A stretch of DNA of 14,400 nucleotides, from positions 1-14,400 of the forward strand of contig CAMJHJ010000034.1 in the NCBI GenBank assembly GCA_946405485.1. The letters are read 5' to 3'. Shown piece after piece: positions 737 through 13,882 of the stretch. The DNA comes from an uncultured Bacteroidales bacterium (GTDB taxonomy: Bacteria; Bacteroidota; Bacteroidia; Bacteroidales; UBA932). Under the pieces are notes generated by a model that did no database searches, had not been told where the DNA came from, and saw only the letters and a program-made list of their open reading frames with translations. Position numbers and translations under genes: made by a program. Positions within the stretch are counted from its first letter, which is position 1, and the number at the start of each line of letters is the position of its first letter.

Positions 737-877
737 ATGTCATTTATCCCCCGCAGGCTGAGACTTTTGCGTGCATATCGCTTCCAGCGGAAAGTCTCGA
801 GGATCCCCGGCAAAATTAGCCGAAAACTTACCAGGAAACTCGCCAGAAGATGTTGGTTCCTCTGGCGGATGAAGTGA
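737..877 (+). CDS. Possible small, highly basic peptide (46 aa) in the leader of the polysaccharide operon
   Basis: An ATG at 737, preceded by the A-rich stretch AAATAAAAGATA, opens a 46-codon frame ending TGA at 875-877, 11 bp before the pyruvyl transferase start. The peptide has about 12 Arg and 5 Lys and no Asp or Glu. It starts MSFIPRRLRLLRAYRF and ends with a Trp-rich tail (CWFLWRMK). Such a charge pattern could fit an RNA- or membrane-binding peptide, a leader peptide, or the degraded end of a lost gene. A frame this short is common by chance, and both inverted repeats in the leader overlap it. I recognise no family. It is reported as possible only. Confidence 0.25.
   Translation: MSFIPRRLRLLRAYRFQRKVSRIPGKISRKLTRKLARRCWFLWRMK
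760..798 (+). promoter_or_regulatory. Inverted repeat with nested hairpin in the operon leader
   Basis: GAGACTTT (760-767) and AAAGTCTC (791-798) are perfect 8-bp complements. Inside the 23-nt loop, CGCT (779-782) and AGCG (786-789) can form a second small stem. No T-run follows, so this does not look like an ordinary intrinsic terminator. Its place between the upstream gene and the first polysaccharide gene would suit a 5' leader element controlling transcription elongation, as is known for Bacteroides capsule operons with UpxY/NusG-type antiterminators. That role is only inferred here. Confidence 0.3.
841..867 (+). promoter_or_regulatory. Second inverted repeat in the operon leader
   Basis: CGCCAGA (841-847) and TCTGGCG (861-867) are perfect 7-bp complements around a 13-nt loop, and G849-C859 and A850-T858 could extend the stem past one mismatch. 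It ends 21 bp before the chosen start at 889. It also covers the alternative ATG at 850, which is one reason not to use that start. It may fold in the 5' UTR and affect translation or elongation; a chance repeat is also possible. Confidence 0.25.
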
Positions 878-888
878 GTTCGAATGAA

Positions 889-2010
889 ATGAAAGTTGGA
901 ATTTTAACATATCATAGGGCTGAGAACTACGGCGCATTACTTCAAGCGTATGCGCTGCGTGAGTATTTGAAGAGACAGGGATATGATGTGGACTTTGTAG
1001 ATTATTGGCCCGATTATCATAAGGACTATTTCAGGATTTTCCCGCGCAAGAAATTCGCCACCGGAGGACTTGTCGCCAAGGCCCTGAGTGTCTACTGGGC
1101 AACCGTTTGGGCGCTTCCCCGCTATCGCCGCAAGCGAGTGATGCAGGACTTCATGAAGCGCTTCCTGGGGGTGTCCGGGCCTGCGAAATATGCAAGCGAC
1201 AAGGATGTCTGCCGGGAGTTCGATACGGTCGTCTTTGGCAGCGACCAGATTTGGCGCCAGCAGAACCTCCCGACCCATAAGGGACTGGACCTGTGGTATT
1301 TCGGTTCACCCAACATCGAAGCCCGGAAGGTCGCCTATGCTGGAAGTACCGGCCCCATTGACCTGTCCGATAAGGAGCGGGAACTTTTCAAACAATACCT
1401 TTCGGCGTTCGACAGACTGTCCGTCCGCGAATCCTCCTTGAAGGATCTGCTGGATTCGATGGGGCTGACGTCCACGCTTGTCGTCGATCCTGTTTTCCTG
1501 TTGGGTAAACAACCGTGGCTGGAGCTGGCTGCAATGTCAAGCAAGCATGCCACCTACAAACAGAAGAAATACATCCTGTTCTATAATCTCCTGAACTCGA
1601 AAGAAGCGGCAAGGTTCGCGGAGAAGCTGAGCCGGGAGAAGAAACTCCCTATGATCGAAATCACGAAGAGATTCGGCTTCCGATATGTGGGGAAGCGGTT
1701 TTCGCATTATGCGTCTGTCCCTGACTTCCTCTCGCTGATTGAAAATGCCGAATTCGTGGTCAGCAATTCTTTCCACGGCGTCGCCCTGTCCGTCATCTTG
1801 GGCAAGCAGTTCTACGCAATCGGCATGGGAAAACGCTCAGGCCGCGTCGAGTCGCTGCTGGCGGCCTTGGGAATCGAGGAGAGGTATCTCGCCAACGGAG
1901 AAATGCCGGCGGGAGAGATAGATTACAATCAGGTTGAAGAGCGGTTGGCCTGCTATGCGGAACAATCCAGAGACTTCCTCGAGGAAGCCCTTGAAACGCC
2001 GGAGGCCTAA
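889..2010 (+). CDS. Polysaccharide pyruvyl transferase family protein
   Basis: This 373-aa cytoplasmic protein matches the polysaccharide pyruvyl transferase family (PF04230 type), whose studied members move pyruvate from phosphoenolpyruvate onto a sugar as a ketal and so add negative charge to surface glycans. Visible marks are the N-terminal MKVGILTYHR plus ENYGALLQ (residues 12-19), VVFGSDQIW (114-122), VVDPVFLL (198-205) and SNSFHGVALS (292-301) with the conserved His296. The ATG at 889 was chosen because family members begin at this point. The in-frame ATG at 850 would add 13 unlike residues and lies in a hairpin. It is the first clear gene of the locus and is 14 bp from the flippase gene. 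Not every family member transfers pyruvate, so the exact reaction is unproven. Confidence 0.88.
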   Translation: MKVGILTYHRAENYGALLQAYALREYLKRQGYDVDFVDYWPDYHKDYFRIFPRKKFATGGLVAKALSVYWATVWALPRYRRKRVMQDFMKRFLGVSGPAKYASDKDVCREFDTVVFGSDQIWRQQNLPTHKGLDLWYFGSPNIEARKVAYAGSTGPIDLSDKERELFKQYLSAFDRLSVRESSLKDLLDSMGLTSTLVVDPVFLLGKQPWLELAAMSSKHATYKQKKYILFYNLLNSKEAARFAEKLSREKKLPMIEITKRFGFRYVGKRFSHYASVPDFLSLIENAEFVVSNSFHGVALSVILGKQFYAIGMGKRSGRVESLLAALGIEERYLANGEMPAGEIDYNQVEERLACYAEQSRDFLEEALETPEA

Positions 2011-2024
2011 CGCATTTTTTTTGA

Positions 2025-3575
2025 ATGACTACTGTTAACGCGAACAATAAGCGGATAGCCAAGAATACCTTGATGCTATATATCCGGATGATTGTCGTGA
2101 TGCTGGTTACGCTGTACACATCACGCGTCGTCCTGCACGCTTTGGGGGCGGAAGATTTTGGCATCAACAACGTCGTGGGTGGTATCGTGACCATGCTCTC
2201 TTTCCTGAGCAACACGATGCTGCACTCTGCGCAACGCTTCTTCTCCATAGAGCTGGGGCGGGAGAATTACGATCAGCTCAAGAAAGTCTTCAAGGTCAGC
2301 ATCACGATTTATCTGCTGATCGGAGTCGCATCGCTGATCCTGGGTGAGACGGTGGGAATGTGGTTCATGCACAGTTACATGACGATCCCGCCGGAGAGGA
2401 TGCTGGCGGCAGAATGGGTCCTGCACTTCGCGGTTTTCTCCTTCTGCATCTCGATCCTGGTCCTCCCTTACAAGGCGGCCATCATGGCGCGGGAGAATAT
2501 GTCCATCATGGCTTATCTGAGCATCGTGGAGGCCATCGCGAAACTTGCTATCGTTTACCTCCTCGTCGTCAGTCCGATTGACAAACTGATCTCCTATGCA
2601 GCCCTGTCATTTGCCGTGCATGTCATCATCACGGGAGCCTATATGCTGTTCGCGCGGATCAAATACGAAGAGTGCAGATTCGGTATCGTCTCGGAGCGCA
2701 AACTGTTCAATGAGGTGATGAGCTTCACGGGGTGGTCCTTCATGGGCCATTTCGCGACGGTGATCCGGAGCCAGGGCGTGAATATCCTTCTGAACGTCTA
2801 TTGCGGACCGATCGTCAATGCCGCCCGTGCATTGGCATTCCAGGTCAATACGGCAGTCACCAATCTGTACTACAACTTCTTCATGGCTGTGAAGCCGCAG
2901 ATCATCAAATACTACTCCCTTGAAAACAGGGAGGAGATGTTCAAACTGATCATCCGCGGAAGCAAGATCTGCTATTTCCTGGTCTTCGTCATTTCATTGC
3001 CGTTGCTCCTGGAGACTGATTTTGTATTGGGCTTGTGGCTGAAGGAAGTGCCGGATTATACGGCAATCTTTGTCCAGTTGGTGTTGGTGAATACTTTGAT
3101 TGAAGCTGTGTTGGCAGCTTTGACAACCGCAATCGACGCGACCGGAGACATTAAGCGTTATCAGTCCGTTCTGACTGCAATCCTGCTGGCGAGTTTCTTC
3201 ATCTCTTGGATCGTCCTCTGTCGGGGAGGAGCACCGTTCTTGCCGATGATCGTGATCATCCTCTTGACCCTTGTCCGGCTTGTTGTCCAGATGTATTTCG
3301 TCCAGAAGCAGTTGTCGCTCAAGATGAGCTATTTCACAAAGGCTGTGCTTGTGCCGATGGTTCTGGCGAGCCTTTGCGCCTCCGTTCTTCCTTGTTTAGT
3401 ATGCCGGGTGATGGACGGCGGGTGGCTGCGGCTGGTCGTGGTCTTGCTGGCATCCTGCATCGGCGCCATGGCCTTCTTCTGGTTTATCGGAGTCCAAAAA
3501 GAAGAGCGCGACGCTTTGCTCAACCTTTTCAGGAAGAAGTTTATGAAGAAGGATGTCTGCCTGCCTCAGGAATAA
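2025..3575 (+). CDS. wzx: Wzx-like polysaccharide flippase (MATE/MOP superfamily)
   Basis: A 516-aa integral inner-membrane protein with about 12-14 hydrophobic segments spread over its whole length, the usual size and shape for Wzx-type lipid-linked oligosaccharide flippases of the MOP superfamily. The N-terminal region has the typical look of this group in Bacteroidota: RIAKNTLMLYIRM (10-22), TSRVVLHALGAEDFGI (32-47) and a polar stretch HSAQRFFSIELGR (67-79). Its expected job is to move undecaprenyl-pyrophosphate-linked repeat units to the periplasmic face for the polymerase encoded next. The start at 2025 lies 14 bp after the previous stop, and a run of eight T sits in that gap. The next start is only 4 bp after this stop, so the two are surely cotranscribed. 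The wzx symbol is assigned by role and context and is not an orthology claim. Confidence 0.85.
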   Translation: MTTVNANNKRIAKNTLMLYIRMIVVMLVTLYTSRVVLHALGAEDFGINNVVGGIVTMLSFLSNTMLHSAQRFFSIELGRENYDQLKKVFKVSITIYLLIGVASLILGETVGMWFMHSYMTIPPERMLAAEWVLHFAVFSFCISILVLPYKAAIMARENMSIMAYLSIVEAIAKLAIVYLLVVSPIDKLISYAALSFAVHVIITGAYMLFARIKYEECRFGIVSERKLFNEVMSFTGWSFMGHFATVIRSQGVNILLNVYCGPIVNAARALAFQVNTAVTNLYYNFFMAVKPQIIKYYSLENREEMFKLIIRGSKICYFLVFVISLPLLLETDFVLGLWLKEVPDYTAIFVQLVLVNTLIEAVLAALTTAIDATGDIKRYQSVLTAILLASFFISWIVLCRGGAPFLPMIVIILLTLVRLVVQMYFVQKQLSLKMSYFTKAVLVPMVLASLCASVLPCLVCRVMDGGWLRLVVVLLASCIGAMAFFWFIGVQKEERDALLNLFRKKFMKKDVCLPQE

Positions 3576-3579
3576 TAAA

Positions 3580-4791
3580 ATGACTGGCGCTTCGATAAAA
3601 ACCAACATATATGACAAGCTGCTGATCATCTTGATTGTCAGCCTTGTCTCCGGATATGCGGGAGGGATGCTCTTCTCGCCTGTCCATATCGTTGAAATAG
3701 CGGTTCTGCCATATTTTTTTTCCTGTAAGATGCTGTTCCGGAAGCGCATCTTCTTCCAGATGTTTTTATTCTCTTTTATCTGGCTGTCGTTTAGCGTCAT
3801 TTCATTATTGTGGGCATCAGAACCATATAGAAGTATTGTTACCTTGGTGATGTTTTTCTTCCGGTTCTTGATGTGTTTTGAATTGCTTGCTTTCTCCATG
3901 AGAGCCCGAAAACCGCTGGAATCTATCTCGAAAGGCTGGCTGGTGGCCGTTCTTATAACATTGGTTATCGGTCTGTTTGAGATCTTTACGGATCATCATT
4001 TTGCTTATGCACGTGAAGCGGAATTAACTGCCTTGAGCGAGATCGTCCAGAGAGCACGTGCCTCCGTCCTGTTTTATAATCCGAATACTTACAGCCTGTT
4101 CCTTGTGATGGCTTTCCCGTTCCTGGTCTATCGACTTTTTTCGGATAATCGGAAATGGGTGACGATCGTGACGATGTTGGTACTGCTGTTTGTCGTTATC
4201 CGGAATGCTTCGCGAGGAGCCATACTCAGTCTTGGTGTTATGACGATCGTGACCCTGTTCTACTTCCTGAAGCGAAGAAAATACCGTAGATATGCCATTC
4301 TGTCTATTGTCTTGCTTGTGATACTGCTGGTCCTTTTCGGACAGAGTCTGTTCTCTGCATTTCTCCTTAGAATGGAGACCCAGGGCATGCAGGACGGAGC
4401 GAGATTTGATATATGGGCAGGCGCCTGGGATGTGTTCGTTAAATCGCATGGATTGGGCGTTGGCGTGGGAAGTATGACTGCCGTGTTGGGGGAGTTGAAC
4501 CGTTTCGGTATCGGATATGCCCACTGCATGTTGCTGGAAGCTTTGGTTGAGGGCGGTGTTGTCCTTGCTTCCCTGATTGTTATCTTTTTGTTCCGGCTCT
4601 TTAAATCCGCTCTGTCCGAAACGCAAAGGGAAGTGAAACTTGTCCTGCTTTTGTCAATGATTACGTACCCTATCTATTTTATTATCAACAGCGAATACCT
4701 GCGCCCGGCCTTTATCTGGTGCTTCTTTATGTGTCTCTATCTGTTCGCGAAACATCAGGTACTGACCGCGACCCAGCAGCAGAGAGTTTGA
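3580..4791 (+). CDS. wzy: Wzy-like polysaccharide polymerase / O-antigen ligase family membrane protein
   Basis: A 403-aa protein with roughly ten to twelve hydrophobic segments. A large polar loop between late helices carries the hallmarks of the Wzy_C/O-antigen ligase family: NASRGA (209-214), RFDIWAGAWDVF (275-286), GLGVGVG (291-297) and AHCMLLEALVEGG (314-326). Wzy polymerases join flipped repeat units en bloc in the periplasm, while WaaL-type ligases with the same fold attach chains to lipid A core. The position straight after a Wzx-like gene favours polymerase. The ATG at 3580 is preferred over upstream in-frame starts because those overlap the flippase gene; it leaves a 4-bp gap. Codon use is clearly less GC-rich than in the genes after 5978 (28 of 60 G+C at 4081-4140 by hand count). 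Confidence 0.8.
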   Translation: MTGASIKTNIYDKLLIILIVSLVSGYAGGMLFSPVHIVEIAVLPYFFSCKMLFRKRIFFQMFLFSFIWLSFSVISLLWASEPYRSIVTLVMFFFRFLMCFELLAFSMRARKPLESISKGWLVAVLITLVIGLFEIFTDHHFAYAREAELTALSEIVQRARASVLFYNPNTYSLFLVMAFPFLVYRLFSDNRKWVTIVTMLVLLFVVIRNASRGAILSLGVMTIVTLFYFLKRRKYRRYAILSIVLLVILLVLFGQSLFSAFLLRMETQGMQDGARFDIWAGAWDVFVKSHGLGVGVGSMTAVLGELNRFGIGYAHCMLLEALVEGGVVLASLIVIFLFRLFKSALSETQREVKLVLLLSMITYPIYFIINSEYLRPAFIWCFFMCLYLFAKHQVLTATQQQRV

Positions 4792-4823
4792 GGGATGATT
4801 AAACTAAGTAAATAGTATTCGAA

Positions 4824-5972
4824 ATGAAAATACTGGTTGTCGCGAACGGTTATCCTACTCCGAGGGATCCTCAATGGGGTTGCTTTGAGCGGGATCAAGC
4901 TATTGCGTTGAAGGAGTTCGGCCACGATGTCGCTATCCTTGCGGTTGATACGCGATTCCGGAGATATAAAAGAAAACATGGTGTCTCGATTATTCGTGAA
5001 GATGGCCTTGTTGTATATTGGGGCTATTGGTTGCCTACTAAAATCATAAGAATTAGGCACTTAAAAGACTGGATTACCTGTCGCCTTTTTGATAAAACTT
5101 ATTCAAAACTTCTAAGGGAATGGGGGAAACCGGACGTGCTTTTTGCTCATTACCAGCGGAACATCTACTTCTCTCTGTATTTAAAAGAGAAGTATAATCT
5201 TCCTCTTGTCGGAATGGAGCATTGGAGCGCGCTTATGCTTGACCAGCTCCCGAAATTCGTCGCCCAAAGAGGAAGAGACGCGTATCCTGCTGCGGATAAA
5301 CTCCTTTCTGTTTCCAGAGCCTTGTCTGAAAACATCCGGCAAAAGTTTAATGTGTCTTCAGAGGTCGTTAACGATATGTTGGGCCCAGAGTTCCTGGATT
5401 ACTCCGTCAGTTCACGAAATAAAACCGGAGAGTTCCGTTTTATAGCAGTCGGAAGTTTATTCCCGGTCAAGGGGTATGATTTACTGATTAGTGCTTTTGC
5501 TGCGTCAGGGATGAATTCACGCGGATGTAGCTTGACTATTATTGGAGATGGTCCAGAGCGCGCTGCTTTGGCGCGGATTATCGCCGAGCACAATTTGTCT
5601 GAGTCCGTGCACCTGCCCGGGCGGAAGTCAAAAGAAGAGATAGTCCAGGCACTAAGGAAAAGCGAAGCCTTTGTCGTGTCTTCTCGTTCTGAAACCTTCG
5701 GTGTCGCTTGTATTGAAGCCTTGTCTCAAGGTCTTCCTTGTATTGCTACAAGATGTGGCGGACCGGAAGAAATCATTACCGAAAAGGATGGTATTATGAT
5801 AGATCCCGAAAGCGTTTCGGCGCTCGCCGAAGCGATGACTCAGCTGTTCGAGAATTATGAGCGATACGATCAGAAAGAGATTGCGGATCGATGCATGAGC
5901 CGTTTCTCACCCTCTGCGATAGCTACCCGCTTGACGACTATTTTTGAGGAGACAATTCATAATTACAAATAA
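4824..5972 (+). CDS. GT4 family glycosyltransferase (GT-B fold)
   Basis: A 382-aa cytosolic or membrane-associated retaining glycosyltransferase. The N-terminal half begins MKILVVANGYPTPRDPQWGCF, typical of GT-B acceptor domains, and includes HWSAL (133-137). The C-terminal nucleotide-sugar domain starts near 205 with FIAVGSLFPVKGYDLL (K216), then IIGDGPE (239-245) and the family's EX7E motif, E290 TFGVACI E298, followed by CGGPEEI. It should add one sugar to the growing lipid-linked repeat unit; donor and acceptor cannot be read from sequence. It follows the polymerase after a 32-bp AT-rich gap and is 5 bp from the acyltransferase gene. It is the only clear glycosyltransferase in the window, so others needed for the repeat unit must lie elsewhere. 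Confidence 0.9.
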   Translation: MKILVVANGYPTPRDPQWGCFERDQAIALKEFGHDVAILAVDTRFRRYKRKHGVSIIREDGLVVYWGYWLPTKIIRIRHLKDWITCRLFDKTYSKLLREWGKPDVLFAHYQRNIYFSLYLKEKYNLPLVGMEHWSALMLDQLPKFVAQRGRDAYPAADKLLSVSRALSENIRQKFNVSSEVVNDMLGPEFLDYSVSSRNKTGEFRFIAVGSLFPVKGYDLLISAFAASGMNSRGCSLTIIGDGPERAALARIIAEHNLSESVHLPGRKSKEEIVQALRKSEAFVVSSRSETFGVACIEALSQGLPCIATRCGGPEEIITEKDGIMIDPESVSALAEAMTQLFENYERYDQKEIADRCMSRFSPSAIATRLTTIFEETIHNYK

Positions 5973-5977: not shown

Positions 5978-6622
5978 ATGAAGAAGATAGCTATATATGG
6001 CGCCGGCGGTTTCGGCCGGGAAGTTTTTTGCCTGATCCAGAAGATCAACGCCGTCTCCCCGCAGTGGGAAGTGATCGGGTTTTTCGACGACGGGAAGCCG
6101 AAAGGCGAGCCGGTCGGCCGTTACGGCAAGGTCTTGGGCGGCATGACGGAGGTCAACAGCTGGCCCGAGCCGCTGGCCGTCGTGATCGCCGTGGGCAGCA
6201 CCGCGAATATGAGAAAGATTGTCGGGGGCATCCAATCTCCGAACATTTCTTTCCCCAACATCATCCACCCGGACGTGGTGTATGCGGACGAGGAGTCCGT
6301 GACGATGGGGAAGGGGAACATCGTCCAGCGCGGTTCCGCTTTCTCCTGCGACGTGAAGATGGGCGACTTCAACGTGTTCAATGGCGGAACGGTCCTGGGG
6401 CATGATGTGGTCCTGGGCTCCTTCAATGTCCTGATGCCGGCTGTTCGGATTTCCGGCAGCACTACGGTGGGTGATGCCAATTTCTTCGGCATCAGCTCCA
6501 TCGTACTCCAGGGATTGAAAATCGGGAACGACGTCACTTTAAGCGCCGGGAGCGTCCTGATGAGGAAGGCCAAAGACGGCAAGCTCTATATCGGCAACCC
6601 GGCGAAAATTATGGAGTTTTAG
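5978..6622 (+). CDS. PglD/NeuD-like sugar O/N-acyltransferase (left-handed beta-helix)
   Basis: This 214-aa protein has the two-part layout of PglD/NeuD enzymes. An N-terminal Rossmann-like nucleotide-sugar-binding part (IAIYGAGGFGREVF, 4-17; FFDDG, 35-39; VVIAVGS, 68-74) is followed from about residue 97 by hexapeptide repeats of a left-handed beta-helix (VTMGKGNIVQ, LGHDVVLGSF, TTVGDANFFG, LKIGNDVTLS, YIGNPAK). His142 in LGHDV matches the conserved catalytic His position of the family. Known relatives move an acetyl group from acetyl-CoA to a 4-amino sugar or a sialic-acid-type sugar. The ACP-based acyl module downstream makes a longer hydroxyacyl donor plausible here, but this is inferred. 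It is 5 bp from the glycosyltransferase gene and 6 bp from the nitroreductase gene. GC use rises sharply from this gene onward. Confidence 0.87.
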   Translation: MKKIAIYGAGGFGREVFCLIQKINAVSPQWEVIGFFDDGKPKGEPVGRYGKVLGGMTEVNSWPEPLAVVIAVGSTANMRKIVGGIQSPNISFPNIIHPDVVYADEESVTMGKGNIVQRGSAFSCDVKMGDFNVFNGGTVLGHDVVLGSFNVLMPAVRISGSTTVGDANFFGISSIVLQGLKIGNDVTLSAGSVLMRKAKDGKLYIGNPAKIMEF

Positions 6623-6628: not shown

Positions 6629-7618
6629 ATGAAAAAACTGATCAAGAAAATAGTCCCGGCGAAAGTTATCGACTGGCTGAGGCAGTTGAAATACTTACCC
6701 GAGATATGCAGGGAGGCGAAGTATATCAAGAAGAAAGTGCTCCGTTTCTCAATGACGTTCAACAAGGAACGCGATTCGTACCTGGCCGGGTTGATGATCC
6801 GGAGCCATGTGCTGGAGAAGGGCATTACCATGCCGGAGCGACGGATGGGATTCGGATATGCCCGGGTCAGGGATATTATAAAAAGGGCCCGGAAGAGTGT
6901 GAAACTGTATGGGGCAGACAGTGTTTTTGTCCAGGCAGCCATCGCTGATCTGAAGCAGTATCAGGACATCCACAAAGAGGCTGATTTCCAACTCCCGGAA
7001 GACATCGTCAGTGGGATTGATTCGTTGCTTCCCTTCCTTGCGGTGGAGGACACGAACTGCTTTATGACCATGCGGGAGGAGTTCTTCAAGCCCCGCGCGG
7101 ATTTTGCAGATTTCGCAAGAAGCCGCCACAGCGTGCGCTGGTTTGATGATTCGCCGGTGGATGAGGAGAAACTGATGGAAGCCATCCGTCTGGCCCAGAC
7201 GGCACCGTCCGCCTGCAACCGTCAGGCGACCCGGGTGAAGATCATCTCTTCAGAGAAAGGGAAGAAACTGTGTCGGTCGCTCCAACATGGCAACCGGGGT
7301 TTCGGAGATAAAGCCGGCAAGTGGCTGCTTGTCACTACGGAGCTTGGCGATTGGGCGCACAATAACGTGGAGATGGCCTATATCGATGCCGGCATCTTCA
7401 CGATGAACCTCCTCTATGCGTTGCATTACTACGGCTTCGTCGCCTGTACGCTTAACGCCCATCTGGAGGTCTCCAAGCGAAAGGAGCTTTATGATGGCCT
7501 TGGGATTCCCGAGTCGGAGCTGCCGGCTGCGTTCATCGTGATCGGCAATCCTGCGAAGTCTTTTATGGTCCCGAAAAGCCGAAGGCTGAACGTTGATGAT
7601 ATTATTCAGGTAATATAG
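6629..7618 (+). CDS. Nitroreductase family protein with N-terminal helical extension
   Basis: A 329-aa protein whose C-terminal half, from about 160, is a nitroreductase-fold FMN domain: SRHSVRWFDDSPVDEEKL (165-182), APSACNRQ (192-199), then IDAGIFTMNLLYALHYYG (252-269) and FIVIGNP (302-308). These are FMN- and dimer-interface-type elements of NAD(P)H-dependent flavin oxidoreductases. The first 155 residues are basic and helical (KKLIKKIVP; SYLAGLMIRSHVLEKGI) and are not part of the usual ~200-aa nitroreductase. Similar extended proteins occur in polysaccharide loci, often with pyruvyl transferases; this is from memory. A redox step on a sugar or acyl precursor is a guess. It lies 6 bp after the acyltransferase gene and 28 bp before the first ACP. 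Confidence 0.8.
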   Translation: MKKLIKKIVPAKVIDWLRQLKYLPEICREAKYIKKKVLRFSMTFNKERDSYLAGLMIRSHVLEKGITMPERRMGFGYARVRDIIKRARKSVKLYGADSVFVQAAIADLKQYQDIHKEADFQLPEDIVSGIDSLLPFLAVEDTNCFMTMREEFFKPRADFADFARSRHSVRWFDDSPVDEEKLMEAIRLAQTAPSACNRQATRVKIISSEKGKKLCRSLQHGNRGFGDKAGKWLLVTTELGDWAHNNVEMAYIDAGIFTMNLLYALHYYGFVACTLNAHLEVSKRKELYDGLGIPESELPAAFIVIGNPAKSFMVPKSRRLNVDDIIQVI

Positions 7619-7646: not shown

Positions 7647-7877
7647 ATGGAACTTAATGAGTTTATCGCGAATTTCGCGGAGCAGTTTGATGAGACGGAT
7701 GCCAGTGTGTTTACTGCACAGACCGCATTCCACGATTTGGATGAGTATTCTTCCCTGATCGCCCTGTCGATCATCGCCATGGTGGACGAGGAATACGATG
7801 TCGCGCTAAAGGGTGACGACATGAAGTCTGCCGTGACGATTGAAGACCTGTACAACATCGTAAAGAGCAAAATGTAA
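7647..7877 (+). CDS. Acyl carrier protein 1 (atypical phosphopantetheine site)
   Basis: A 76-aa acidic protein of carrier-protein size and pattern: an N-terminal helix (MELNEFIANFAEQF), then FHDLDEYSSLIAL (28-40) and MVDEEYDVAL (45-54), ending with a short helix EDLYNIVKSKM. By alignment with the usual DSL motif, the phosphopantetheine would attach to Ser36 of YSSL; the preceding residue is Ser instead of Asp. A TTG three codons upstream (7638) could also serve as start, but ATG 7647 gives the normal carrier length. The stop TAA overlaps the KAS III start by one base (TAATG), which points to a working pair. The carrier should hold the growing chain made by the module. A phosphopantetheinyl transferase is not encoded nearby. 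Confidence 0.85.
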   Translation: MELNEFIANFAEQFDETDASVFTAQTAFHDLDEYSSLIALSIIAMVDEEYDVALKGDDMKSAVTIEDLYNIVKSKM

Positions 7878-8911
7878 TGGCATATCTCAGCTTTCGGAAT
7901 GTCCGGATCGCCGGTTTCTCGACTGGGGTCCCGAAGACTGAATTGACGAACGAAGGCGCGGATTCCGAACACTATTCCGCCTCGTCGTTCATCAATTCGA
8001 CCGGCGTGCGCCGCCACAGGGTGTCGGAGAAATACACCGCCGGGGATCTCTGCTACTATGCGGCGGAGCGGCTCATTTCAGATCTGGGATGGGACAAGCA
8101 GGAGATCGAAGCCATCGTCTTCGTCTCCCAGCACGCCGACTATATCTTGCCGGCTACGGCCTGTATCCTGCAGGAGCGCCTCGGCCTGTCCAAGGAGTGC
8201 TATACGGCCGACCTGTCGCTGGGCTGCTCCGGCTGGGTTTACGGCTTGAGCACCGTGGTCTCGCTCCTCTCCTGCGGCATGATCAAGAAGGCCCTGCTGA
8301 TGAGCGGCGACGCCAAGCGGCGCATCAACTACGTGGATCCGCTCTTCGGCCACGCCGGCGCCGTCACGGCCATCGAGTACCAGGAGGGTGCTGCTCCCAT
8401 CCAGTTCTATTTCGGAACGGACGGCAGCGGCTTCGACGCCCTGATCATCCCCGACGGCGGCGCGCGCAACCAGTTCTCCGAGAAGTCCTTCGTGCCGGAG
8501 GACGTGGAGGGCCATATGCTGAACCGCCTGCAGTCCCGAATGAAGGGCATGGACGTGTTCTCGTTCGGCATCACCTGGGGCCCGAAATCCGTCAAGCGCC
8601 TTGCCGAGCACTTCGGCTTTGACTATCAGGAGTGCGACTACTTCGTCTTTCACCAGGCCAACCTGCTGATGAACGAGAAGATCCGCACCAAGCTGAAACT
8701 GCCGGAGGAGAAGGTCCCTTATTGCCTGCAGGACTTCGGCAATACGGCTTCGGCTTCCATCCCGCTGACCATCGTGTCGCAGCTGCGGGGGAAGGTCGAG
8801 AAGCCCCGGATCAAGTGGATCGGCTGCGGCTTCGGCGTGGGCCTGTCCTGGGGCGCCGTCTATTTCGAGACGGAAGATATCGTGGTTTCTGAACTTGTAG
8901 AAGTAGAGTAA
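7877..8911 (+). CDS. 3-oxoacyl-ACP synthase III-like condensing enzyme 1 (KAS III, thiolase fold)
   Basis: A 344-aa FabH-like protein with the full KAS III triad: Cys117 in LGCSGWVYGL, His259 in FVFHQAN (256-262) and Asn289 in DFGNTASASIP. The C-terminal GCGFGVGLSWGA (316-327) is the usual glycine-rich closing motif. FabH enzymes condense an acyl-CoA or similar primer with malonyl-ACP and release a 3-oxoacyl-ACP. The protein is somewhat longer than the ~317 aa of housekeeping FabH, as is common for secondary-pathway relatives, some of which form esters or amides instead. It is translationally coupled to ACP 1 on one side and to the first SDR on the other, by TAATG overlaps. A housekeeping FabH is unlikely because of the second copy at 12827 and the locus context. 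Confidence 0.87.
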   Translation: MAYLSFRNVRIAGFSTGVPKTELTNEGADSEHYSASSFINSTGVRRHRVSEKYTAGDLCYYAAERLISDLGWDKQEIEAIVFVSQHADYILPATACILQERLGLSKECYTADLSLGCSGWVYGLSTVVSLLSCGMIKKALLMSGDAKRRINYVDPLFGHAGAVTAIEYQEGAAPIQFYFGTDGSGFDALIIPDGGARNQFSEKSFVPEDVEGHMLNRLQSRMKGMDVFSFGITWGPKSVKRLAEHFGFDYQECDYFVFHQANLLMNEKIRTKLKLPEEKVPYCLQDFGNTASASIPLTIVSQLRGKVEKPRIKWIGCGFGVGLSWGAVYFETEDIVVSELVEVE

Positions 8912-9666
8912 TGAGTTATAATCCTTATTCCCTGGCCGGGAAAACCATCCTCGTGACCGGCGCCGGTTCCGGCATCGGCCGCGCCACCTCCGTCGAGTGC
9001 TCGAAACTGGGCGCCCGGCTGGTGCTCGTGGACATCAACGAGCAGGGCCTGGCCGACACGCTGGCCATGCTGGCGCAGCCGGAACTGGAGCACCTCACGT
9101 TCGCGGTTAATCTCTGCGACGAAGAGGCCATCGCGGATATGGTGGGCAAGCTCCCTGTCCTGGATGGCGTGTCCAACAACGCGGGCATCACGAAACTCGT
9201 CCCCCTGCAGTTCATCGGGGCGGACGATTTCGAGCGGATCCACAAGGTGAACCTGCTGGCTCCGATCCTGCTGACGAAGTATCTGGTGAAGAAGAAAAAG
9301 ATCGCCAAGGGCGGCTCGATCGTTTTCACCGCATCTGCCGGCGGCGTATTTGTCTCTTCGTTCGGCAATGCCATCTACGCCACCTCGAAGTGCGGCGTGG
9401 ACGGCTATATGCGGACCGCGGCGCTGGAGCTGGCCCCCAAGGGCATCCGCTGCAACAGCGTCAACCCGGGCATGGTGGAGACGCCGCTCATCAACCGCGG
9501 CCAGATTACTGACGAGCAGCACGAGAAGGATAAGGAGAATTATCCGCTCGGCCGTTACGGAAAGCCGGAAGATGTCGCTTTCGCGACGATCTATCTCCTG
9601 TCTGACGCCTCTTGCTGGATGACCGGCACGGCCCTGAAAATTGACGGAGGTTTAACATTGAAATAA
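8911..9666 (+). CDS. SDR oxidoreductase 1, FabG-like 3-ketoacyl-ACP reductase
   Basis: A 251-aa classical short-chain dehydrogenase/reductase. The cofactor motif TGAGSGIG lies at 16-23, NNAG at 89-92, the catalytic set is Asn114, Ser142 (FTAS), Tyr156 and Lys160 (YATSK), and the C-terminal TGTALKIDGG is typical of FabG-like enzymes. Asp41 at the end of the second beta strand (VLVD) would favour NADH over NADPH by the usual rule. Expected reaction: reduction of a 3-oxoacyl-ACP to the 3-hydroxyacyl-ACP. The start overlaps the KAS III stop by one base, and only 1 bp separates it from SDR 2, of which it is a close paralogue, including a shared lysine run KKKK (127-130) before GGSIVFTAS. A sugar or polyol dehydrogenase role cannot be excluded. 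Confidence 0.85.
   Translation: MSYNPYSLAGKTILVTGAGSGIGRATSVECSKLGARLVLVDINEQGLADTLAMLAQPELEHLTFAVNLCDEEAIADMVGKLPVLDGVSNNAGITKLVPLQFIGADDFERIHKVNLLAPILLTKYLVKKKKIAKGGSIVFTASAGGVFVSSFGNAIYATSKCGVDGYMRTAALELAPKGIRCNSVNPGMVETPLINRGQITDEQHEKDKENYPLGRYGKPEDVAFATIYLLSDASCWMTGTALKIDGGLTLK
9435..9482 (+). repeat. Near-identical direct repeat, copy 1 (within SDR 1)
   Basis: These 48 bases match 10204-10251 in the next gene with a single difference (a TC/TG change in a Val codon). They encode PKGIRCNSVNPGMVET, a substrate-loop region. Offset is 769 bp. The match is a mark of tandem gene duplication or later gene conversion. Confidence 0.75.
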
Positions 9667-9667
9667 C

Positions 9668-10429
9668 ATGTCGACGAATCCCAATCCGTTTACTCTCGAA
9701 GGCAAGACCATCCTGATCACCGGCGGGGCCGGGGGGATCGGCAGCGCCACTGCCCGCGCCTGCGTGGCGATGGGCGCGCGCGTCGTCCTCACCGACATCC
9801 GCGAGGATGCCCTCAAGAGCGTGATCGAGTCGCTGCCGGCGCCCAGTTGCGGCGGCGAGAACCTCTATTTTACCGCCGACCTGACCAAGCCGGAGGAGCT
9901 GGACGCCCTGGTCGCATTCTGCCCGTCGCTGGACGGAATGGTGTGCAACGCCGGCGTGATGAAGCTGACGCTCACGCAGTTCATCACGGAGGAGGAGCTG
10001 CAGCGCATCCAGCGCATCAACCTGAATGCGCCGATCCTGCTCACGCGCTCGCTGCTGAAAAAGAAGAAGATCGGCCGCGGCGGATCCATCGTGTTCACGG
10101 CTTCGGCCGCGGGCATCTACCGCGTGTCCATCGGCAACGCCATCTATGCCACCACGAAGTGCGGCATCGACGCGTTCATGCGGACGGTCGCGCTGGAGTT
10201 CGGCCCCAAGGGCATCCGCTGCAACAGCGTGAACCCGGGCATGGTGGAGACCGCGCTGATCGGCAACTTCACCGAAGAAGAGAAAGAACGGGAGCGCCAG
10301 AATTACCCCCTGCGGCGGTTCGCGCAGCCCGAAGATATCGCCAACGGCATCGTGTACCTGCTGTCCGACGCGTCGGCCTTTGTGACCGGCACGGCGCTGA
10401 AGATCGACGGCGGCATGACCTTAAGTTAG
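9668..10429 (+). CDS. SDR oxidoreductase 2, FabG-like paralogue of SDR 1
   Basis: A 253-aa classical SDR with TGGAGGIG (18-25), Asn118, Ser146 (FTAS), Tyr160 and Lys164 (YATTK), and the ending TGTALKIDGGMTLS. It is clearly a tandem copy of SDR 1: same N-terminal lead-in (NP-L-GKTIL), same lysine run (131-134) and the same CNSVNPGMVET segment. The usual NNAG motif is CNAG here (93-96), a mild change near the cofactor. It probably reduces a second 3-oxo intermediate or one of different chain length or stereochemistry. The start is 1 bp after the SDR 1 stop, and the next gene starts 6 bp after this stop. A redundant copy of SDR 1 is the simplest alternative. Confidence 0.84.
   Translation: MSTNPNPFTLEGKTILITGGAGGIGSATARACVAMGARVVLTDIREDALKSVIESLPAPSCGGENLYFTADLTKPEELDALVAFCPSLDGMVCNAGVMKLTLTQFITEEELQRIQRINLNAPILLTRSLLKKKKIGRGGSIVFTASAAGIYRVSIGNAIYATTKCGIDAFMRTVALEFGPKGIRCNSVNPGMVETALIGNFTEEEKERERQNYPLRRFAQPEDIANGIVYLLSDASAFVTGTALKIDGGMTLS
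10204..10251 (+). repeat. Near-identical direct repeat, copy 2 (within SDR 2)
   Basis: Second copy of the 48-base stretch at 9435-9482, with one difference. The flanking sequence in the two genes has diverged clearly more, so strong codon or protein constraint, or a conversion tract, must explain the local identity. Confidence 0.75.
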
Positions 10430-10435
10430 TCTCGT

Positions 10436-11191
10436 ATGAAACTCTTAGAGAACAAAGTATCCCTCATCACCGGCGCAGGCCGGGGGATCGGGCGTGTGAT
10501 CGCGGAGCAGTTTGCCAGCGACGGCGCCATCGTCTATATCAACGACCTGATGCCCGGCGACATGGAGGAGTGGGCCCGCGGGTGCGCGGAGCGCCACGGT
10601 ACCAGGGTGGTGCCCATCTGCTTCGACGTGACGGACAGCGCCGCGCTGAAGGCCGGCCTGATGTCCATCTACAAGGCGGAAGGCCGGATCGACGTAGTGG
10701 TCAACAACGCCGCCATCATCCAGAACCAGAAGCTGGGCATGGTGACCAAGCCGCTGCTGGAGAAGATGTACAGCGTGAACGTGTTCGCCGTCATCGACAT
10801 GATCCAGATTGTGTCGCGCCTGATGGCCCGCACGGGAGGCGGAAGCATCGTCAACATCGCTTCCATCACGGGTGTGGTGGGCTCTCCGGGCCAGGTGGCG
10901 TATTCGTCCACCAAGGGCGCGGTGATCGCCATCACCAAGTCGTCGGCCAAGGAGCTGAGCCCGCAGCAGATCCGCGTGAACGCGGTGGCCCCGGGCATCA
11001 TCAAGACCGAACGCTTCGAGGAGCTCTACGAGGCCAGCGGCGACAAGATTGACCAGCGGATCAGTCGCATCGCGCTGGGCCGCCTCGGCACGCCGCAGGA
11101 CGTGGCGAACGCCGTGAGTTTCCTGGCGTCGGACCGCGCGTCCTACATCAGCGGCCACATCCTGGGCGTGGACGGATGCGCAAGCATTTAA
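10436..11191 (+). CDS. SDR oxidoreductase 3, FabG-like
   Basis: A 251-aa SDR, distinct from the tandem pair and closer to textbook FabG. TGAGRGIG lies at 12-19, NNAA at 90-93 (Ala instead of the usual final Gly), followed by Asn115, Ser143 (NIASITG), Tyr156 and Lys160 (YSSTK), VNAVAPG (181-187) and the ending ISGHILGVDG. The second strand ends YINDL, with Asp37 as a likely NAD-type ribose-binding residue. The predicted role is 3-ketoacyl-ACP reduction. A third reductase beside only two condensing enzymes suggests that one SDR does something else, such as acting on another keto group. It is 6 bp from SDR 2 and 3 bp from the ligase gene. Confidence 0.85.
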   Translation: MKLLENKVSLITGAGRGIGRVIAEQFASDGAIVYINDLMPGDMEEWARGCAERHGTRVVPICFDVTDSAALKAGLMSIYKAEGRIDVVVNNAAIIQNQKLGMVTKPLLEKMYSVNVFAVIDMIQIVSRLMARTGGGSIVNIASITGVVGSPGQVAYSSTKGAVIAITKSSAKELSPQQIRVNAVAPGIIKTERFEELYEASGDKIDQRISRIALGRLGTPQDVANAVSFLASDRASYISGHILGVDGCASI

Positions 11192-11194
11192 CGT

Positions 11195-12574
11195 ATGTTT
11201 TTAGACCTTGACAAGAAAGAGCGGACCCGCATCGCCGCCATCGACGACAGCGGGGAAGCCTTGACCTATGGCGAGCTCTGCGACTTCGCCGCGGAGTTCC
11301 GCCGATATCTGCCGGAGCGGGCCTTGCTGTTCCTCCTTTCGGAGAACTGCCACGGCTCGCTGCTGGGCTATGTCGGATGCCTTTCCAACGGCATCGTCCC
11401 GCTCATCCTGAGCGCCCGGACGGAGGAGAGCCTGTACACCAACCTCCGGGACATGTACCGGCCCGCCTATCTGTGGGCGCCGGAGGCGATGGCGGAGACG
11501 CTCGGCTATGCGGAAGTGTTCCGCGCGCACGGCTACGTGCTGCTCGCCACGGGCAACGCCCCGGTGGCGATGCACCCCGACCTGGCGCTGCTGCTGCCGA
11601 CTTCCGGCTCCACCGGCAGCCCCAAGCTGGTGCGGCACAGCCTGCGCAACATCGAGGCCAACGCCGACAACGTCCGGCGGCTGTTCCAGCTGACCGGCGC
11701 GGAGAAGGCGATGGCCATCCTCCCGATGCATTACACGATGGGCCTCTCGGTGATCGCCAGCCACCTGCTGGCGGGCGCCACGCTGCTCCTGTCCGGCCGG
11801 TCCCTGCTGGACCGCGGGTTCTGGAGCACGCTCAAGGAGGCCACCAGTTTCACGGGCGTGCCCTACAGCTACGAGCTGCTGATGAAGATGCGCTTCACGC
11901 GCATGGACCTGCCCAAGCTGGAGGTCATCACCCAGGGCGGTGGAAAGCTGACGCCGGAGATGTTCCGGGCGCTGGCCGAATACGCCCGCGACAAGGGCAA
12001 GAAGTTCATCGCCACCTACGGCCAGTCGGAGTGCACGGCGCGTATGGCCTACCTCCCGGCCGAGTTGGCGCTGGAGAAGACCTGCAGCATCGGTTTCGCC
12101 GAACCGGGCGGGCAGCTCTCGATCGTGGACGCCGAAGGCAACGAGACCTTCGAGGGCGAAGCCACGGGCGAGATGGTGTACCGCGGCGAGAATGTGACCC
12201 TCGGCTATGCCTATGGCGTGGAGGACTTGCAGAAGGGCGACGAGAACCACGGCGTGATGCACACCGGCGACCTGGCGCGGCGCGATGCCGACGGCTGCTA
12301 CTTCATCGTCGGCCGCCTGAAGCGCTTCCTCAAGATCTTCGGCCTGCGCATCGGCCTGGACGAGGTGGAGAACCTCATCAAGCAGGAATACAAAGCCGAC
12401 TGCTACTGCAAGGGCGACGATGAGAAACTGGTGGTTCTGGTGACGGATCCGGCCCTGGTTGAGGCCCTGCCGGGCTTCATCGAGGAGAAGACCCACCTGT
12501 TCCACAAGAACATAGAAGTGCGCCTCGTGGACGCGATCCTGCGCAACGAGGCCGGTAAAGTGATCAATCAATAA
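11195..12574 (+). CDS. AMP-forming acyl ligase (ANL superfamily adenylation enzyme)
   Basis: A 459-aa adenylating enzyme with the standard motifs in order: P-loop-like LLPTSGSTGSPK (133-144), TYGQSE (274-279), HTGDL (356-360), the hinge GRLKRFLKIFGLRIGLDEVE (373-392) and, near the C-terminus, NEAGKV with Lys455 in the place of the catalytic lysine of the adenylation half-reaction. It should activate a carboxylic acid with ATP and pass it to CoA or, given the ACP gene 9 bp downstream, to the ACP thiol. The protein is short for an acyl-CoA synthetase (usually above 500 aa), mainly because of a compact N-terminal region. The substrate cannot be read from sequence. It could feed a starter acid to the module or recycle released acid. 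Confidence 0.86.
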   Translation: MFLDLDKKERTRIAAIDDSGEALTYGELCDFAAEFRRYLPERALLFLLSENCHGSLLGYVGCLSNGIVPLILSARTEESLYTNLRDMYRPAYLWAPEAMAETLGYAEVFRAHGYVLLATGNAPVAMHPDLALLLPTSGSTGSPKLVRHSLRNIEANADNVRRLFQLTGAEKAMAILPMHYTMGLSVIASHLLAGATLLLSGRSLLDRGFWSTLKEATSFTGVPYSYELLMKMRFTRMDLPKLEVITQGGGKLTPEMFRALAEYARDKGKKFIATYGQSECTARMAYLPAELALEKTCSIGFAEPGGQLSIVDAEGNETFEGEATGEMVYRGENVTLGYAYGVEDLQKGDENHGVMHTGDLARRDADGCYFIVGRLKRFLKIFGLRIGLDEVENLIKQEYKADCYCKGDDEKLVVLVTDPALVEALPGFIEEKTHLFHKNIEVRLVDAILRNEAGKVINQ

Positions 12575-12583
12575 GTAGACAAT

Positions 12584-12823
12584 ATGACCAATCTGGAGAA
12601 ATTGAATGGCATCTTCTGCGAGGTGTTCTCGGTGGATGCCGGGGCGTTGGGCGCCGGTTTTGACAACAAGAGCGTGGAGGGCTGGGACAGCGTCCGCCAG
12701 CTGAGCCTCACCGCTGCGGTGGAGGACAGCTTCGACATCATGCTGGACCCGGAAGACATCCTGGAGTTCACCTCCTACGACAACGCCAAGACCATCCTGG
12801 CCAAGTACGACATCGAACTGTAA
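12584..12823 (+). CDS. Acyl carrier protein 2
   Basis: A 79-aa acidic carrier protein with a canonical attachment site, GWDSVRQLSL (33-42), where Ser36 takes the 4'-phosphopantetheine. It continues AVEDSFDIML (45-54) and DILEFTSYDNAKTILAKY. It differs strongly from ACP 1, so the two carriers are not a recent duplication and probably serve different partners. It sits between the acyl ligase (9 bp upstream) and KAS III 2 (3 bp downstream), which suggests that it receives the acid activated by the ligase and works with the second condensing enzyme. Confidence 0.92.
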   Translation: MTNLEKLNGIFCEVFSVDAGALGAGFDNKSVEGWDSVRQLSLTAAVEDSFDIMLDPEDILEFTSYDNAKTILAKYDIEL

Positions 12824-12826
12824 GGC

Positions 12827-13882
12827 ATGGCACGCTGGGAAATCAAGAACGTAGCCGTCCGCGGCGTCACCGGCACGGTGCCCGACCACGCGGTCAAGAC
12901 CGCCGACTTCGACATCTTCACGAAAGAGGAAGCGGAGATATTCGACAACACCGTCGGCATCAAGAACCGCTACATCGGCCCGGACGACGTGTGCACCTCC
13001 GACCTCTGCTTCGACGCCGCCGAGCGCCTGCTCGCGGCCCTGGGCTGGGAGAAGGAGAGCATCGACGTGCTGGTGTTCGGCTCCGTGACCGGCGACTACA
13101 AGACGCCGCCCACGGCGGGCATCCTGCAGCACCGCCTCGGGCTGCCGACCAGCACCTTCGTGCTGGACATCCCGATGGGCTGCTGCGGCAGTATGTACGC
13201 CATCAACGTGGCCGGCAACCTGTTGAGCGCGGGCAACGTCAAGCGCGCCCTGCTGCTCGTCGGCGACACGGCCCTGCGGATGGGCTCGATGAAGGACAAG
13301 AGCCGCGTCCCCCTGTTCGGCGACAGCGGCACCGCCATGGCGCTGGAGTATGATCCGACGGCCGAGGACATCATCATCGAGTTCAATACCCTGGGCTCCG
13401 GCTACGAGGCCCTCATCACCCCGCACGGCGGCTTCCGCCACCCCATCACACCCGAATCCTTCGTCGAGGAGGACTTCGGCAACGGCATCGTCCGCGCTCC
13501 CAAGGACACGCTCATCAACGGCATGGACGTCTTCTCCTTCGCCATCTCCCGCCCGCCCATCAGCATCAAGCAGATGATGGAGCGCTACGGCCTGACGACG
13601 GACAACGTGGACTACTTCCTGATCCACCAGGCCAACAAGCTCATCGTGGACCGCATCGTCAAGAAGCTCAAGCTCCCGCTCGAGAAGGTCCCCTACGACC
13701 TCCAGGAGTTCGGCAACCTCGGCGGCGCCTCCGTCCCGATGCTGATGACCTACAACCTCGCCGACGAGCTGCAGAAGCGCCCCCTGACGCTCCTCTGCTC
13801 CTCCTTTGGCCTCGGCCTCACCTGGGGCACGATGGTGTTGAGGACCAACGGAGTGAAGGTGGAGCCGGTTGCTAAGATTTAA
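12827..13882 (+). CDS. 3-oxoacyl-ACP synthase III-like condensing enzyme 2 (KAS III)
   Basis: A 351-aa FabH-like protein with a complete triad: Cys119 in PMGCCGSMYAI (116-126), His267 in FLIHQAN (264-270) and Asn297 in EFGNLGGASVP. The closing motif SSFGLGLTWG (325-334) is present. It shares its overall design with KAS III 1 (for example DVFSF-I before the C-terminal half, KLKLP-EKVPY, and -GNxxxASxP), but the two differ throughout, so they are paralogues of some age. The Cys119-Cys120 pair at the active site is a small peculiarity; the first aligns with the nucleophile. It is expected to run a different condensation round, or use a different primer, from KAS III 1. It is the last gene of the GC-rich module; 36 AT-rich bases follow. 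Confidence 0.88.
   Translation: MARWEIKNVAVRGVTGTVPDHAVKTADFDIFTKEEAEIFDNTVGIKNRYIGPDDVCTSDLCFDAAERLLAALGWEKESIDVLVFGSVTGDYKTPPTAGILQHRLGLPTSTFVLDIPMGCCGSMYAINVAGNLLSAGNVKRALLLVGDTALRMGSMKDKSRVPLFGDSGTAMALEYDPTAEDIIIEFNTLGSGYEALITPHGGFRHPITPESFVEEDFGNGIVRAPKDTLINGMDVFSFAISRPPISIKQMMERYGLTTDNVDYFLIHQANKLIVDRIVKKLKLPLEKVPYDLQEFGNLGGASVPMLMTYNLADELQKRPLTLLCSSFGLGLTWGTMVLRTNGVKVEPVAKI

What the first reader, a model, noticed from the sequence alone, without database searches (positions are those of the whole stretch)
7647..13882. Dedicated ACP/KAS III/ketoreductase line without dehydratase in a polysaccharide locus: a possible hydroxyacyl-sugar decoration system
Seen: two ACPs, two intact KAS III enzymes, three intact SDRs and one adenylating ligase in a gapless run, directly downstream of a PglD-like sugar acyltransferase and Wzx/Wzy genes. 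No dehydratase, enoyl reductase, FabF-type synthase or thioesterase is present. Known: KAS III makes 3-oxoacyl-ACP and FabG-type SDRs make 3-hydroxyacyl-ACP, and without FabZ/FabA the hydroxyl stays. I recall, without being able to check it here, that some Bacteroidota O-polysaccharides (Flavobacterium psychrophilum) carry a diamino-dideoxy sugar N-acylated with 3,5-dihydroxyhexanoyl or 3-hydroxybutyryl. Inference: two condensations plus keto reductions give such a chain on ACP, and the acyltransferase at 5978 moves it to an amino sugar.
Basis: partly seen in the sequence, partly recalled or inferred. Interest (0 to 1): 0.78.

Follow-up and report, generated by a model that had tools for sequence, protein, structure and literature searches.

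The report
Acyl-tag assembly line for polysaccharide
Inside a surface-sugar gene cluster, a bacterium related to gut and rumen species carries a small set of fatty-acid-like enzymes that most likely builds a short hydroxy-acid tag and hangs it on an amino sugar; the general idea is already published for a fish bacterium, but the ligase-fed, two-carrier version seen here, built from swappable gene blocks, is a variant for which I found no description.

Summary
The eight genes are real, intact and almost gapless. Of 42 related loci, 40 keep ligase, ACP and KAS III together and 40 carry at least one glycan gene; none of 9 presumed housekeeping-FabH places in host genomes does. One relative (L110) carries PglD-ACP1-KS1-SDR-SDR3-LIG-ACP2-KS2-PglC-PglE-PglF as one unbroken run, so the acyl line sits beside a complete UDP-bacillosamine-type pathway. 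The idea is published: F. psychrophilum wfpC-G and P. syringae vioS/vioR/acp. New here: two blocks with separate histories. Block 2 (SDR3-LIG-ACP2-KS2) is inherited together; ACP1, its SDRs and PglD are exchanged; KS1 is optional. I infer a ligase-fed chain on ACP2, extended by KS2 onto ACP1, reduced, optionally extended again by KS1, then moved by PglD. Main gap: the window holds no aminotransferase, 4,6-dehydratase or initiating transferase.

The parts
5978..6622 (+). PglD/VioB-family sugar N-acyltransferase (final transfer step, inferred)
   Evidence: PF17836 + hexapeptide; TIGR03570 152 bits, under its cut-off of 160.8; best solved relative VioB 7txp, then 4m98, PerB 4ea7, PglD 3bss; His142/Asp143 at least 95% conserved in 27
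6629..7618 (+). nitroreductase-family protein of unknown role, between PglD and ACP1
   Evidence: PF00881; no ORF of L001-L044 had it as best blastp hit above the listing threshold
7647..7877 (+). ACP1, carrier of block 1 (product carrier, inferred)
   Evidence: PF00550 21.6 bits; the Ser that is number 36 from ATG 7647 (39, which counts from 7638) is at least 95% conserved in 40
7877..8911 (+). KS1, optional KAS III (extra elongation, inferred)
   Evidence: PF08545/PF08541 above cut-off; own clade, support 100/100; KS1 over 50% identical in 6 of 42 relatives
8911..9666 (+). SDR1, FabG-like ketoreductase candidate
   Evidence: PF13561; best solved relatives named 3-oxoacyl-ACP reductase; YATSK
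9668..10429 (+). SDR2, paralogue of SDR1 (56% identical)
10436..11191 (+). SDR3, ketoreductase candidate of block 2 (31% and 29% identical to SDR1 and SDR2)
   Evidence: passes only NCBIfam PRK07231 'glucose 1-dehydrogenase'; distances follow LIG (Spearman 0.63)
11195..12574 (+). LIG, adenylate-forming acid ligase (loads ACP2, inferred)
   Evidence: PF00501; Lys455 and core motifs at least 95% conserved in 41; acyl-type A4 region
12584..12823 (+). ACP2, carrier of block 2
   Evidence: PF00550 20.2 bits, just under the cut-off; Ser36 at least 95% conserved in 42
12827..13882 (+). KS2, KAS III of block 2
   Evidence: PF08545/PF08541 above cut-off; Cys119/His267/Asn297 at least 95% conserved in 44; own clade 100/100
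850..5972 (+). polysaccharide context: pyruvyl transferase 850-2010, putative flippase 2025-3575, Wzy-like 3553-4791, GT4 4824-5972
   Evidence: PF04230, PF04932, PF00534. The flippase label is weak: no Pfam, NCBIfam or PDB relative, no match to E. coli or P. distasonis flippases; one homologue in L110 hits MATE TIGR00797 below cut-off

Best explanation
A trans-acting, fatty-acid-synthase-like line that makes a short beta-hydroxyacyl chain and delivers it to the amino group of a nucleotide-activated 4-amino-4,6-dideoxy sugar (most likely UDP-Qui2NAc4N for this PglD subtype) for a surface polysaccharide. Proposed order: LIG adenylates a short acid without an amino group and loads it on ACP2; KS2 takes that acyl group and condenses it with a malonyl unit to give a 3-oxoacyl chain on ACP1; FabG-like SDRs reduce it; KS1, when present, adds a second C2 unit that is again reduced; with no dehydratase the hydroxyls stay; the PglD-like enzyme transfers the chain from ACP1. 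Shown here: gene content, intact catalytic residues, co-inheritance of block 2, exchange of the other parts, glycan context, contiguity with PglC/E/F-type genes in L110. Inferred: every reaction, the carrier each enzyme uses, the acid, the product and the acceptor.
For: Glycan gene in 40 of 42 KS2 loci and at 9 of 11 KS1-clade places from 10 of 393 genomes; 0 of 9 presumed FabH control places. L110: unbroken run PglD-ACP1-KS1-SDR-SDR3-LIG-ACP2-KS2-PglC-PglE-PglF, with PF17836, PF08541, PF00501, PF02397, PF01041, PF02719 confirmed (its two ACPs do not reach Pfam's E 0.001). L043 has the same gene types, interrupted, with PF02397, PF01041, PF02719. PglD lies within 1 kb before an ACP1 in 23 of the 28 loci that have one. 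Relay: 27 of the 28 one-KS loci keep two ACPs (L027 is cut by its contig end), so one KS, or a housekeeping synthase, has to serve both. Block 2: LIG-ACP2 0.85, LIG-KS2 0.84; between blocks 0.06-0.34. Precedents: wfpC-G with 3,5-dihydroxyhexanoyl on Qui2NAc4N, gene roles there predicted (PMC6519341, passages, Discussion); vioS/vioR/acp/vioB with 3-hydroxybutyryl viosamine, the vioR mutant loses the modified sugar (PMC3927599, passages); wbeL predicted for tetronate on perosamine (PMC3441752, passages).
Against: No aminotransferase, 4,6-dehydratase or initiating sugar transferase in the 14.4-kb window; two of the 120 listed relatives of the gene after KS2 are named 'peptidase', so the locus may end there. 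PglD passed the threshold in only 28 of 42 relatives. The ligase has no counterpart in the two precedents with a known hydroxyacyl chain. No enzyme or glycan of this module was found studied, and neither F. psychrophilum nor P. syringae proteins were compared directly. NCBIfam puts no protein of the line into FabH, FabG or a named ligase at cut-off, and names SDR3 after a generic sugar dehydrogenase subfamily. ACP2 is just under Pfam's cut-off. ACP1 and SDR2 distances correlate at only 0.39, so block 1 is barely a unit.
Confidence: 0.68

Rival explanations
1. Two parallel lines, not a relay: block 1 (ACP1-KS1-SDR1-SDR2-PglD) makes one hydroxyacyl group and block 2 (SDR3-LIG-ACP2-KS2) makes another for a different sugar or by a different transferase.
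For: The blocks are physically apart in L031 and L043, have unlike histories, and KS-free ACP-SDR-LIG units stand in glycan loci L080 and L089.
Against: 27 of 28 one-KS loci keep both ACPs, leaving ACP1 and its SDR without a synthase unless KS2 or a housekeeping synthase serves it.
Confidence: 0.17
2. The acyl chain goes to a hydroxyl (ester) or to another acceptor, and the PglD-like enzyme acetylates an unrelated sugar.
For: No amino-sugar genes in the window; 14 of 42 relatives show no PglD above threshold and 5 of the 28 that do have it elsewhere.
Against: PglD/VioB/PerB relation; PglD just before an ACP1 in 23 of 28; PglE/PglF/PglC-type genes with the whole line in L043 and L110.
Confidence: 0.1
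3. A lipid, aryl-polyene or secondary-metabolite pathway that merely lies near glycan genes.
For: KAS III, ACP, SDR and ligases occur in such pathways (general knowledge); in 6 of 16 refetched LIG places of the phylum draw (L083-L088, 28-33% identical) an ACP-LIG pair, and in L082 an ACP-SDR-LIG set, shows no glycan gene among my references; two of the 42 KS2 loci (L040, L042) and L077, L114, L119 show none either.
Against: No dehydratase, FabF-type synthase or thioesterase among 16 window ORFs; glycan gene in 40 of 42 relatives.
Confidence: 0.05

Closest known systems
F. psychrophilum O-polysaccharide R-group genes wfpC-wfpG (PMC6519341)
   Same: ACP, two 3-ketoacyl-ACP synthases, ketoreductase and PglD homologue in an O-polysaccharide locus; PglE/F supply UDP-Qui2NAc4N and a PglC homologue is thought to start the repeat; R-group genes differ between otherwise identical loci. 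Relatives here with the same set and no ligase: L070, L112, L115.
   Different: In what I read one ACP, one reductase and no ligase are named; here two ACPs, three SDRs and an AMP-ligase. Sequences were not compared.
P. syringae viosamine island vioA/B/S/R/acp (PMC3927599)
   Same: KAS III, ketoreductase, ACP and VioB-type transferase for a 3-hydroxybutyryl amide on a 4-amino sugar; vioR tested by mutant and mass spectrometry.
   Different: One synthase, no ligase; flagellin glycan, dTDP sugar.
V. cholerae O1 tetronate gene wbeL (PMC3441752)
   Same: A 471-residue protein with a putative ATP-binding domain predicted to help make the hydroxy acid that N-acylates perosamine; that it is ligase-like is my recollection. 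Parallels the LIG-ACP-SDR unit.
   Different: No KAS III in what I read; similarity of WbeL to LIG was not tested.
Housekeeping FabH / type II fatty acid synthesis
   Same: Family, catalytic triad, ACP chemistry.
   Different: Separate clades and gene contexts.

Membership tests
F. psychrophilum wfp-type hydroxyacyl R-group line | Own ACP with two ketoacyl synthases and a ketoreductase | tested here: met
   ketoreductase role from family and PDB relatives only
F. psychrophilum wfp-type hydroxyacyl R-group line | PglD-family transferase in the same locus | tested here: met
   separated from ACP1 by one nitroreductase-family gene
F. psychrophilum wfp-type hydroxyacyl R-group line | PglE/PglF and PglC-type genes in the locus | tested here: inconclusive
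   absent from the window, which may not hold the whole locus; present in relatives L043, L110
F. psychrophilum wfp-type hydroxyacyl R-group line | Sequence relation to WfpC-WfpG | not tested
   their sequences were not obtained; none of the 120 proteins listed is named as Flavobacterium
F. psychrophilum wfp-type hydroxyacyl R-group line | 3,5-dihydroxyhexanoyl product | not testable with these tools
   needs NMR/MS
P. syringae vio-type 3-hydroxybutyryl line | KAS III + ketoreductase + ACP + VioB-type transferase | tested here: met
P. syringae vio-type 3-hydroxybutyryl line | VioA-type aminotransferase in the cluster | tested here: inconclusive
   no DegT family protein among the window ORFs scanned; DNA beyond the window not available
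KAS III family (KS1, KS2) | PF08545/PF08541 above cut-off and Cys-His-Asn | tested here: met
   NCBIfam FabH models not reached at cut-off
Aryl polyene / ladderane-type pathway | FabF-type synthases and dehydratase (recalled definition) | tested here: not met
   none among 16 window ORFs

The most novel reading that the evidence does not exclude
A ligase-primed, two-carrier mini polyketide line that writes exchangeable hydroxyacyl tags on the initiating amino sugar of gut and rumen Bacteroidales polysaccharides. Chain length and starter are set by shuffling gene blocks (KS1 in or out, ligase type, PglD subtype), so the surface antigen can be rewritten block by block, and the tag may be a hydroxy acid not yet seen in a bacterial glycan.
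Probability: 0.33. Interest if true: 0.66.

Novelty: new variant of a known kind. Interest (0 to 1): 0.45.

Why it matters
Surface glycans decide how gut bacteria meet phages and the immune system. If the block reading holds, acyl decoration could be predicted from genes: with or without KS1, which ligase, which PglD. It would give a testable code linking gene blocks to tag chemistry, as R-group genes are proposed to do for F. psychrophilum serotypes, and new enzymes for N-acylating amino sugars.

Tried and rejected
Lipid or aryl-polyene pathway: judged unlikely, because no dehydratase, FabF-type synthase or thioesterase is among the 16 window ORFs scanned and the context is glycan in 40 of 42 relatives.

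Idea that a conserved Arg after the ligase's A5 motif marks a diacid: dropped, because YGQ(T/S)E...R is shared by the KS-free ligases. What does differ is YTMGLS with QGGG in block-2 ligases against mostly Y(S/C)(Y/F)G with QAGG in the KS-free relatives nearest to them. This suggests another acid but names none.

Idea that each KS brings its own SDR: not upheld. L036 and L110 have KS1 with two SDRs; the window, L004, L031 and L043 with three.

PglD subtype follows KS1: among KS2-selected loci 2 of 3 window-type PglD loci and 1 of 20 P. distasonis-type loci have KS1 (Fisher p 0.034). L031 and L043 are near copies, so this is only suggestive. The wider count (6 of 7 against 1 of 21) includes loci picked by KS1 and is biased. 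Two contrary cases fell under the 45% threshold: L070 and L117 have P. distasonis-type PglD (41% and 45% rounded) with KS1.

Direct comparison with F. psychrophilum proteins failed: one search listed none named so among 120; one search found none of six terms in PMC5601056; supplements could not be opened. Paper searches on 3-hydroxybutyryl capsules in Bacteroides (15 of 29 listed), perosamine and tetronate, Acinetobacter, Qui4N clusters, Bacteroides loci, N-acyltransferases and Bacteroidales O-antigen lines were seen as listings of titles and abstract starts; none pointed to a ligase-fed line of this kind. Most subscription journals are not held, so this is weak evidence of absence.

The 46% KS2 hit (G647) is the same gene as a KS1-clade hit and was not counted as KS2.

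Full report
Observation. The window holds the eight genes at the stated coordinates, on the + strand, with gaps of -1 to 9 nt. Pfam names them PP-binding, ACP_syn_III(+C), three adh_short_C2 and AMP-binding; ACP2 is a little below the cut-off. Conserved at 95% or more in relatives: Cys119/His267/Asn297 of KS2 (44 sequences), the attachment Ser of ACP1 (40) and ACP2 (42), Lys455 of the ligase (41), YxxxK Tyr/Lys of SDR2 and SDR3 (40 each), His142/Asp143 of PglD (27); SDR1 and KS1 motifs are present in the window. Upstream are a pyruvyl transferase, a putative flippase, a Wzy-like protein, one GT4 glycosyltransferase, the PglD-like protein and a nitroreductase-family protein. The flippase label is weak. 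No aminotransferase, 4,6-dehydratase or initiating sugar transferase was found.

Against a simple naming: NCBIfam puts none of the ten proteins tested into a FabH, FabG, ligase or PglD-type model at its cut-off; only SDR3 passes one, the generic 'glucose 1-dehydrogenase' subfamily PRK07231. Best Pfam model of the SDRs is titled enoyl-ACP reductase. PDB relatives of SDR1 and SDR3 are mainly 3-oxoacyl-ACP reductases.

Relatives. A scan of one genome per species with KS2 gave 42 loci, L003-L044; 41 are titled as Bacteroidota lineages, many from ruminants; L041 is a planctomycete. P. distasonis record NZ_OY725780 (L001) is annotated with rfbA, a dTDP-glucose dehydratase, a DegT aminotransferase, acetyltransferase (PglD-like), ACP, SDR, SDR, AMP-binding protein, ACP, KAS III, glycosyltransferase and sugar transferase. 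Tally of the 42: ACP 42, ligase 41 (L040's is 26% identical and of another type, so 40 with at least 40%), SDR 41, any glycan gene 40 (not L040, L042), three or more glycan classes 30, PglD 28, initiating transferase 28, DegT 24, PglD with DegT 17, DegT with a 4,6-dehydratase 7. Each locus is at most 21 kb, some are cut, and the references were few, so these are likely minima. Many loci are close relatives and not independent. The ligase itself is common: 7548 of 8000 scored candidates have E up to 1e-20.

Controls. KS1 as query found 37 KAS III places in ten host genomes. I fetched 18 regions holding 19 of them; the others lie in loci already held. For nine genomes I took the lowest-scoring place as housekeeping FabH (my assumption; L065 is divergent and carries an internal stop). 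Of these 0 of 9 have PglD, ACP, ligase, DegT or initiating transferase nearby in 11-20 kb; one has an SDR, two a faint kinase hit. Of the other nine regions 9 of 9 have an ACP and an SDR nearby and 8 of 9 a glycan gene (not L077). A draw less tied to KS2: KS1-clade enzymes occur in 10 of 393 genomes of the order of B. fluxus, at 11 places; 9 of 11 lie with a glycan gene (L118 on one DegT hit), not L114 (7-kb contig) or L119. The KS2 block is rare there: 3 of 393, one being the centre genome.

Anatomy. Block 2 is SDR3-LIG-ACP2-KS2; block 1 is ACP1-(KS1)-SDR, in 23 of 28 cases with PglD less than 1 kb before ACP1. Pairwise distances of LIG, ACP2 and KS2 correlate at 0.79-0.85, SDR3 with them at 0.56-0.66, ACP1 with SDR2 at only 0.39, between blocks 0.06-0.34; PglD with nothing above 0.21 (L040-L042 left out). 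L031 and L043 share PglD and block 1 with the window at 74-85% but block 2 at 48-70%, and there a WbsX-type gene and one more gene separate the blocks; L004 shares block 2 at 83-91% but has another PglD subtype. KS1, KS2 and the presumed FabH form three separate supported groups in a tree of 80 rows. KS1 is present in 6 of 42.

A series is visible: ACP-SDR-KS (L073-L077); PglD with two KS, one ACP and one SDR (L070, L115, and L112, which has a further ACP-KS-SDR set); KS-free ACP-SDR-LIG in glycan loci (L080, L089); and the combined form with KS1 (window, L004, L031, L036, L043, L044, L110; L044's first SDR is split between two frames). L110 is the best exemplar: on one strand, 2391-12265, PglD-ACP1-KS1-SDR-SDR3-LIG-ACP2-KS2-PglC-PglE-PglF, families confirmed by Pfam except the two ACPs (its SDRs were not scanned). 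It and L043 carry the window's PglD subtype, so UDP-Qui2NAc4N is the likeliest acceptor; L001 and L003 point to dTDP sugars for the other subtype, though several loci of that subtype also have PglE and PglC types.

Mechanism. 27 of the 28 one-KS loci keep both ACPs, so I prefer a relay: LIG loads ACP2, KS2 moves and extends the chain onto ACP1, SDRs reduce, KS1 optionally extends, PglD transfers. The ligase's A4 region lacks the Asp of amino-acid-activating domains (recalled criterion; enzymes of that type in L038, L072, L082, L111 look different), so the acid probably has no amino group. Which acid is unknown. All reactions are inferred.

Known systems. F. psychrophilum: wfpD (ACP), wfpC and wfpE (synthases), wfpF (reductase), wfpG (PglD homologue), roles predicted; 3,5-dihydroxyhexanoyl assigned by NMR; R-group genes differ between serotypes (PMC6519341; passages, Discussion). 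P. syringae: vioS, vioR, acp, vioB for 3-hydroxybutyryl viosamine (PMC3927599; passages). V. cholerae O1: wbeL predicted for tetronate on perosamine (PMC3441752; passages). A review lists 3-hydroxybutyryl and 2-hydroxyglutaryl amides in marine glycans (PMC3210612; passages). So the idea is known; the ligase-fed two-carrier form and its block exchange were not seen in the listings of nine paper searches. New variant of a known kind.

Noticed in passing
window 6629-7618: Nitroreductase-family protein with about 150 extra N-terminal residues between PglD and ACP1; not seen in L001-L044 at the listing threshold.
   Followed up: partly
window 13919-14400: Gene cut by the window end; no Pfam family; two of 120 listed relatives are named 'peptidase' (Oscillospiraceae, Porphyromonadaceae), so the glycan locus may end at 13882.
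   Followed up: partly
window 2-715: Cut ORF with no Pfam family at E 0.001, left of the polysaccharide genes.
   Followed up: no
window 2025-3575: Membrane-protein-like 516-residue ORF in the flippase position with no Pfam, NCBIfam or PDB relative; homologues in L019, L028, L071, L074, L110.
   Followed up: partly
L001: A 19-kb circular 'plasmid 35' of P. distasonis consists of a capsule-type locus with the module; either a mobile capsule locus or a mislabelled piece of chromosome.
   Followed up: no
L004 14346-16608; also L008, L012, L021, L022: MaoC-like hydratase (5 of 42 loci) and HpcH/HpaI lyases (4 of 42, not L022) in the same loci: perhaps another acid-making unit.
   Followed up: partly
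L013, L023, L029, L038 (and L073): FabD-like malonyl transferase near a further ACP/KS/SDR set, 4 of 42 loci.
   Followed up: partly
L041: Planctomycete (Thermoguttaceae) locus with PglD-ACP-SDR-KS1-SDR-KS-ACP-LIG: likely transfer between phyla.
   Followed up: no
L038 12890, L072 7463, L082 5628 and 7855, L111 5648: Amino-acid-type adenylation proteins near such lines, hinting at aminoacyl tags in other loci.
   Followed up: no
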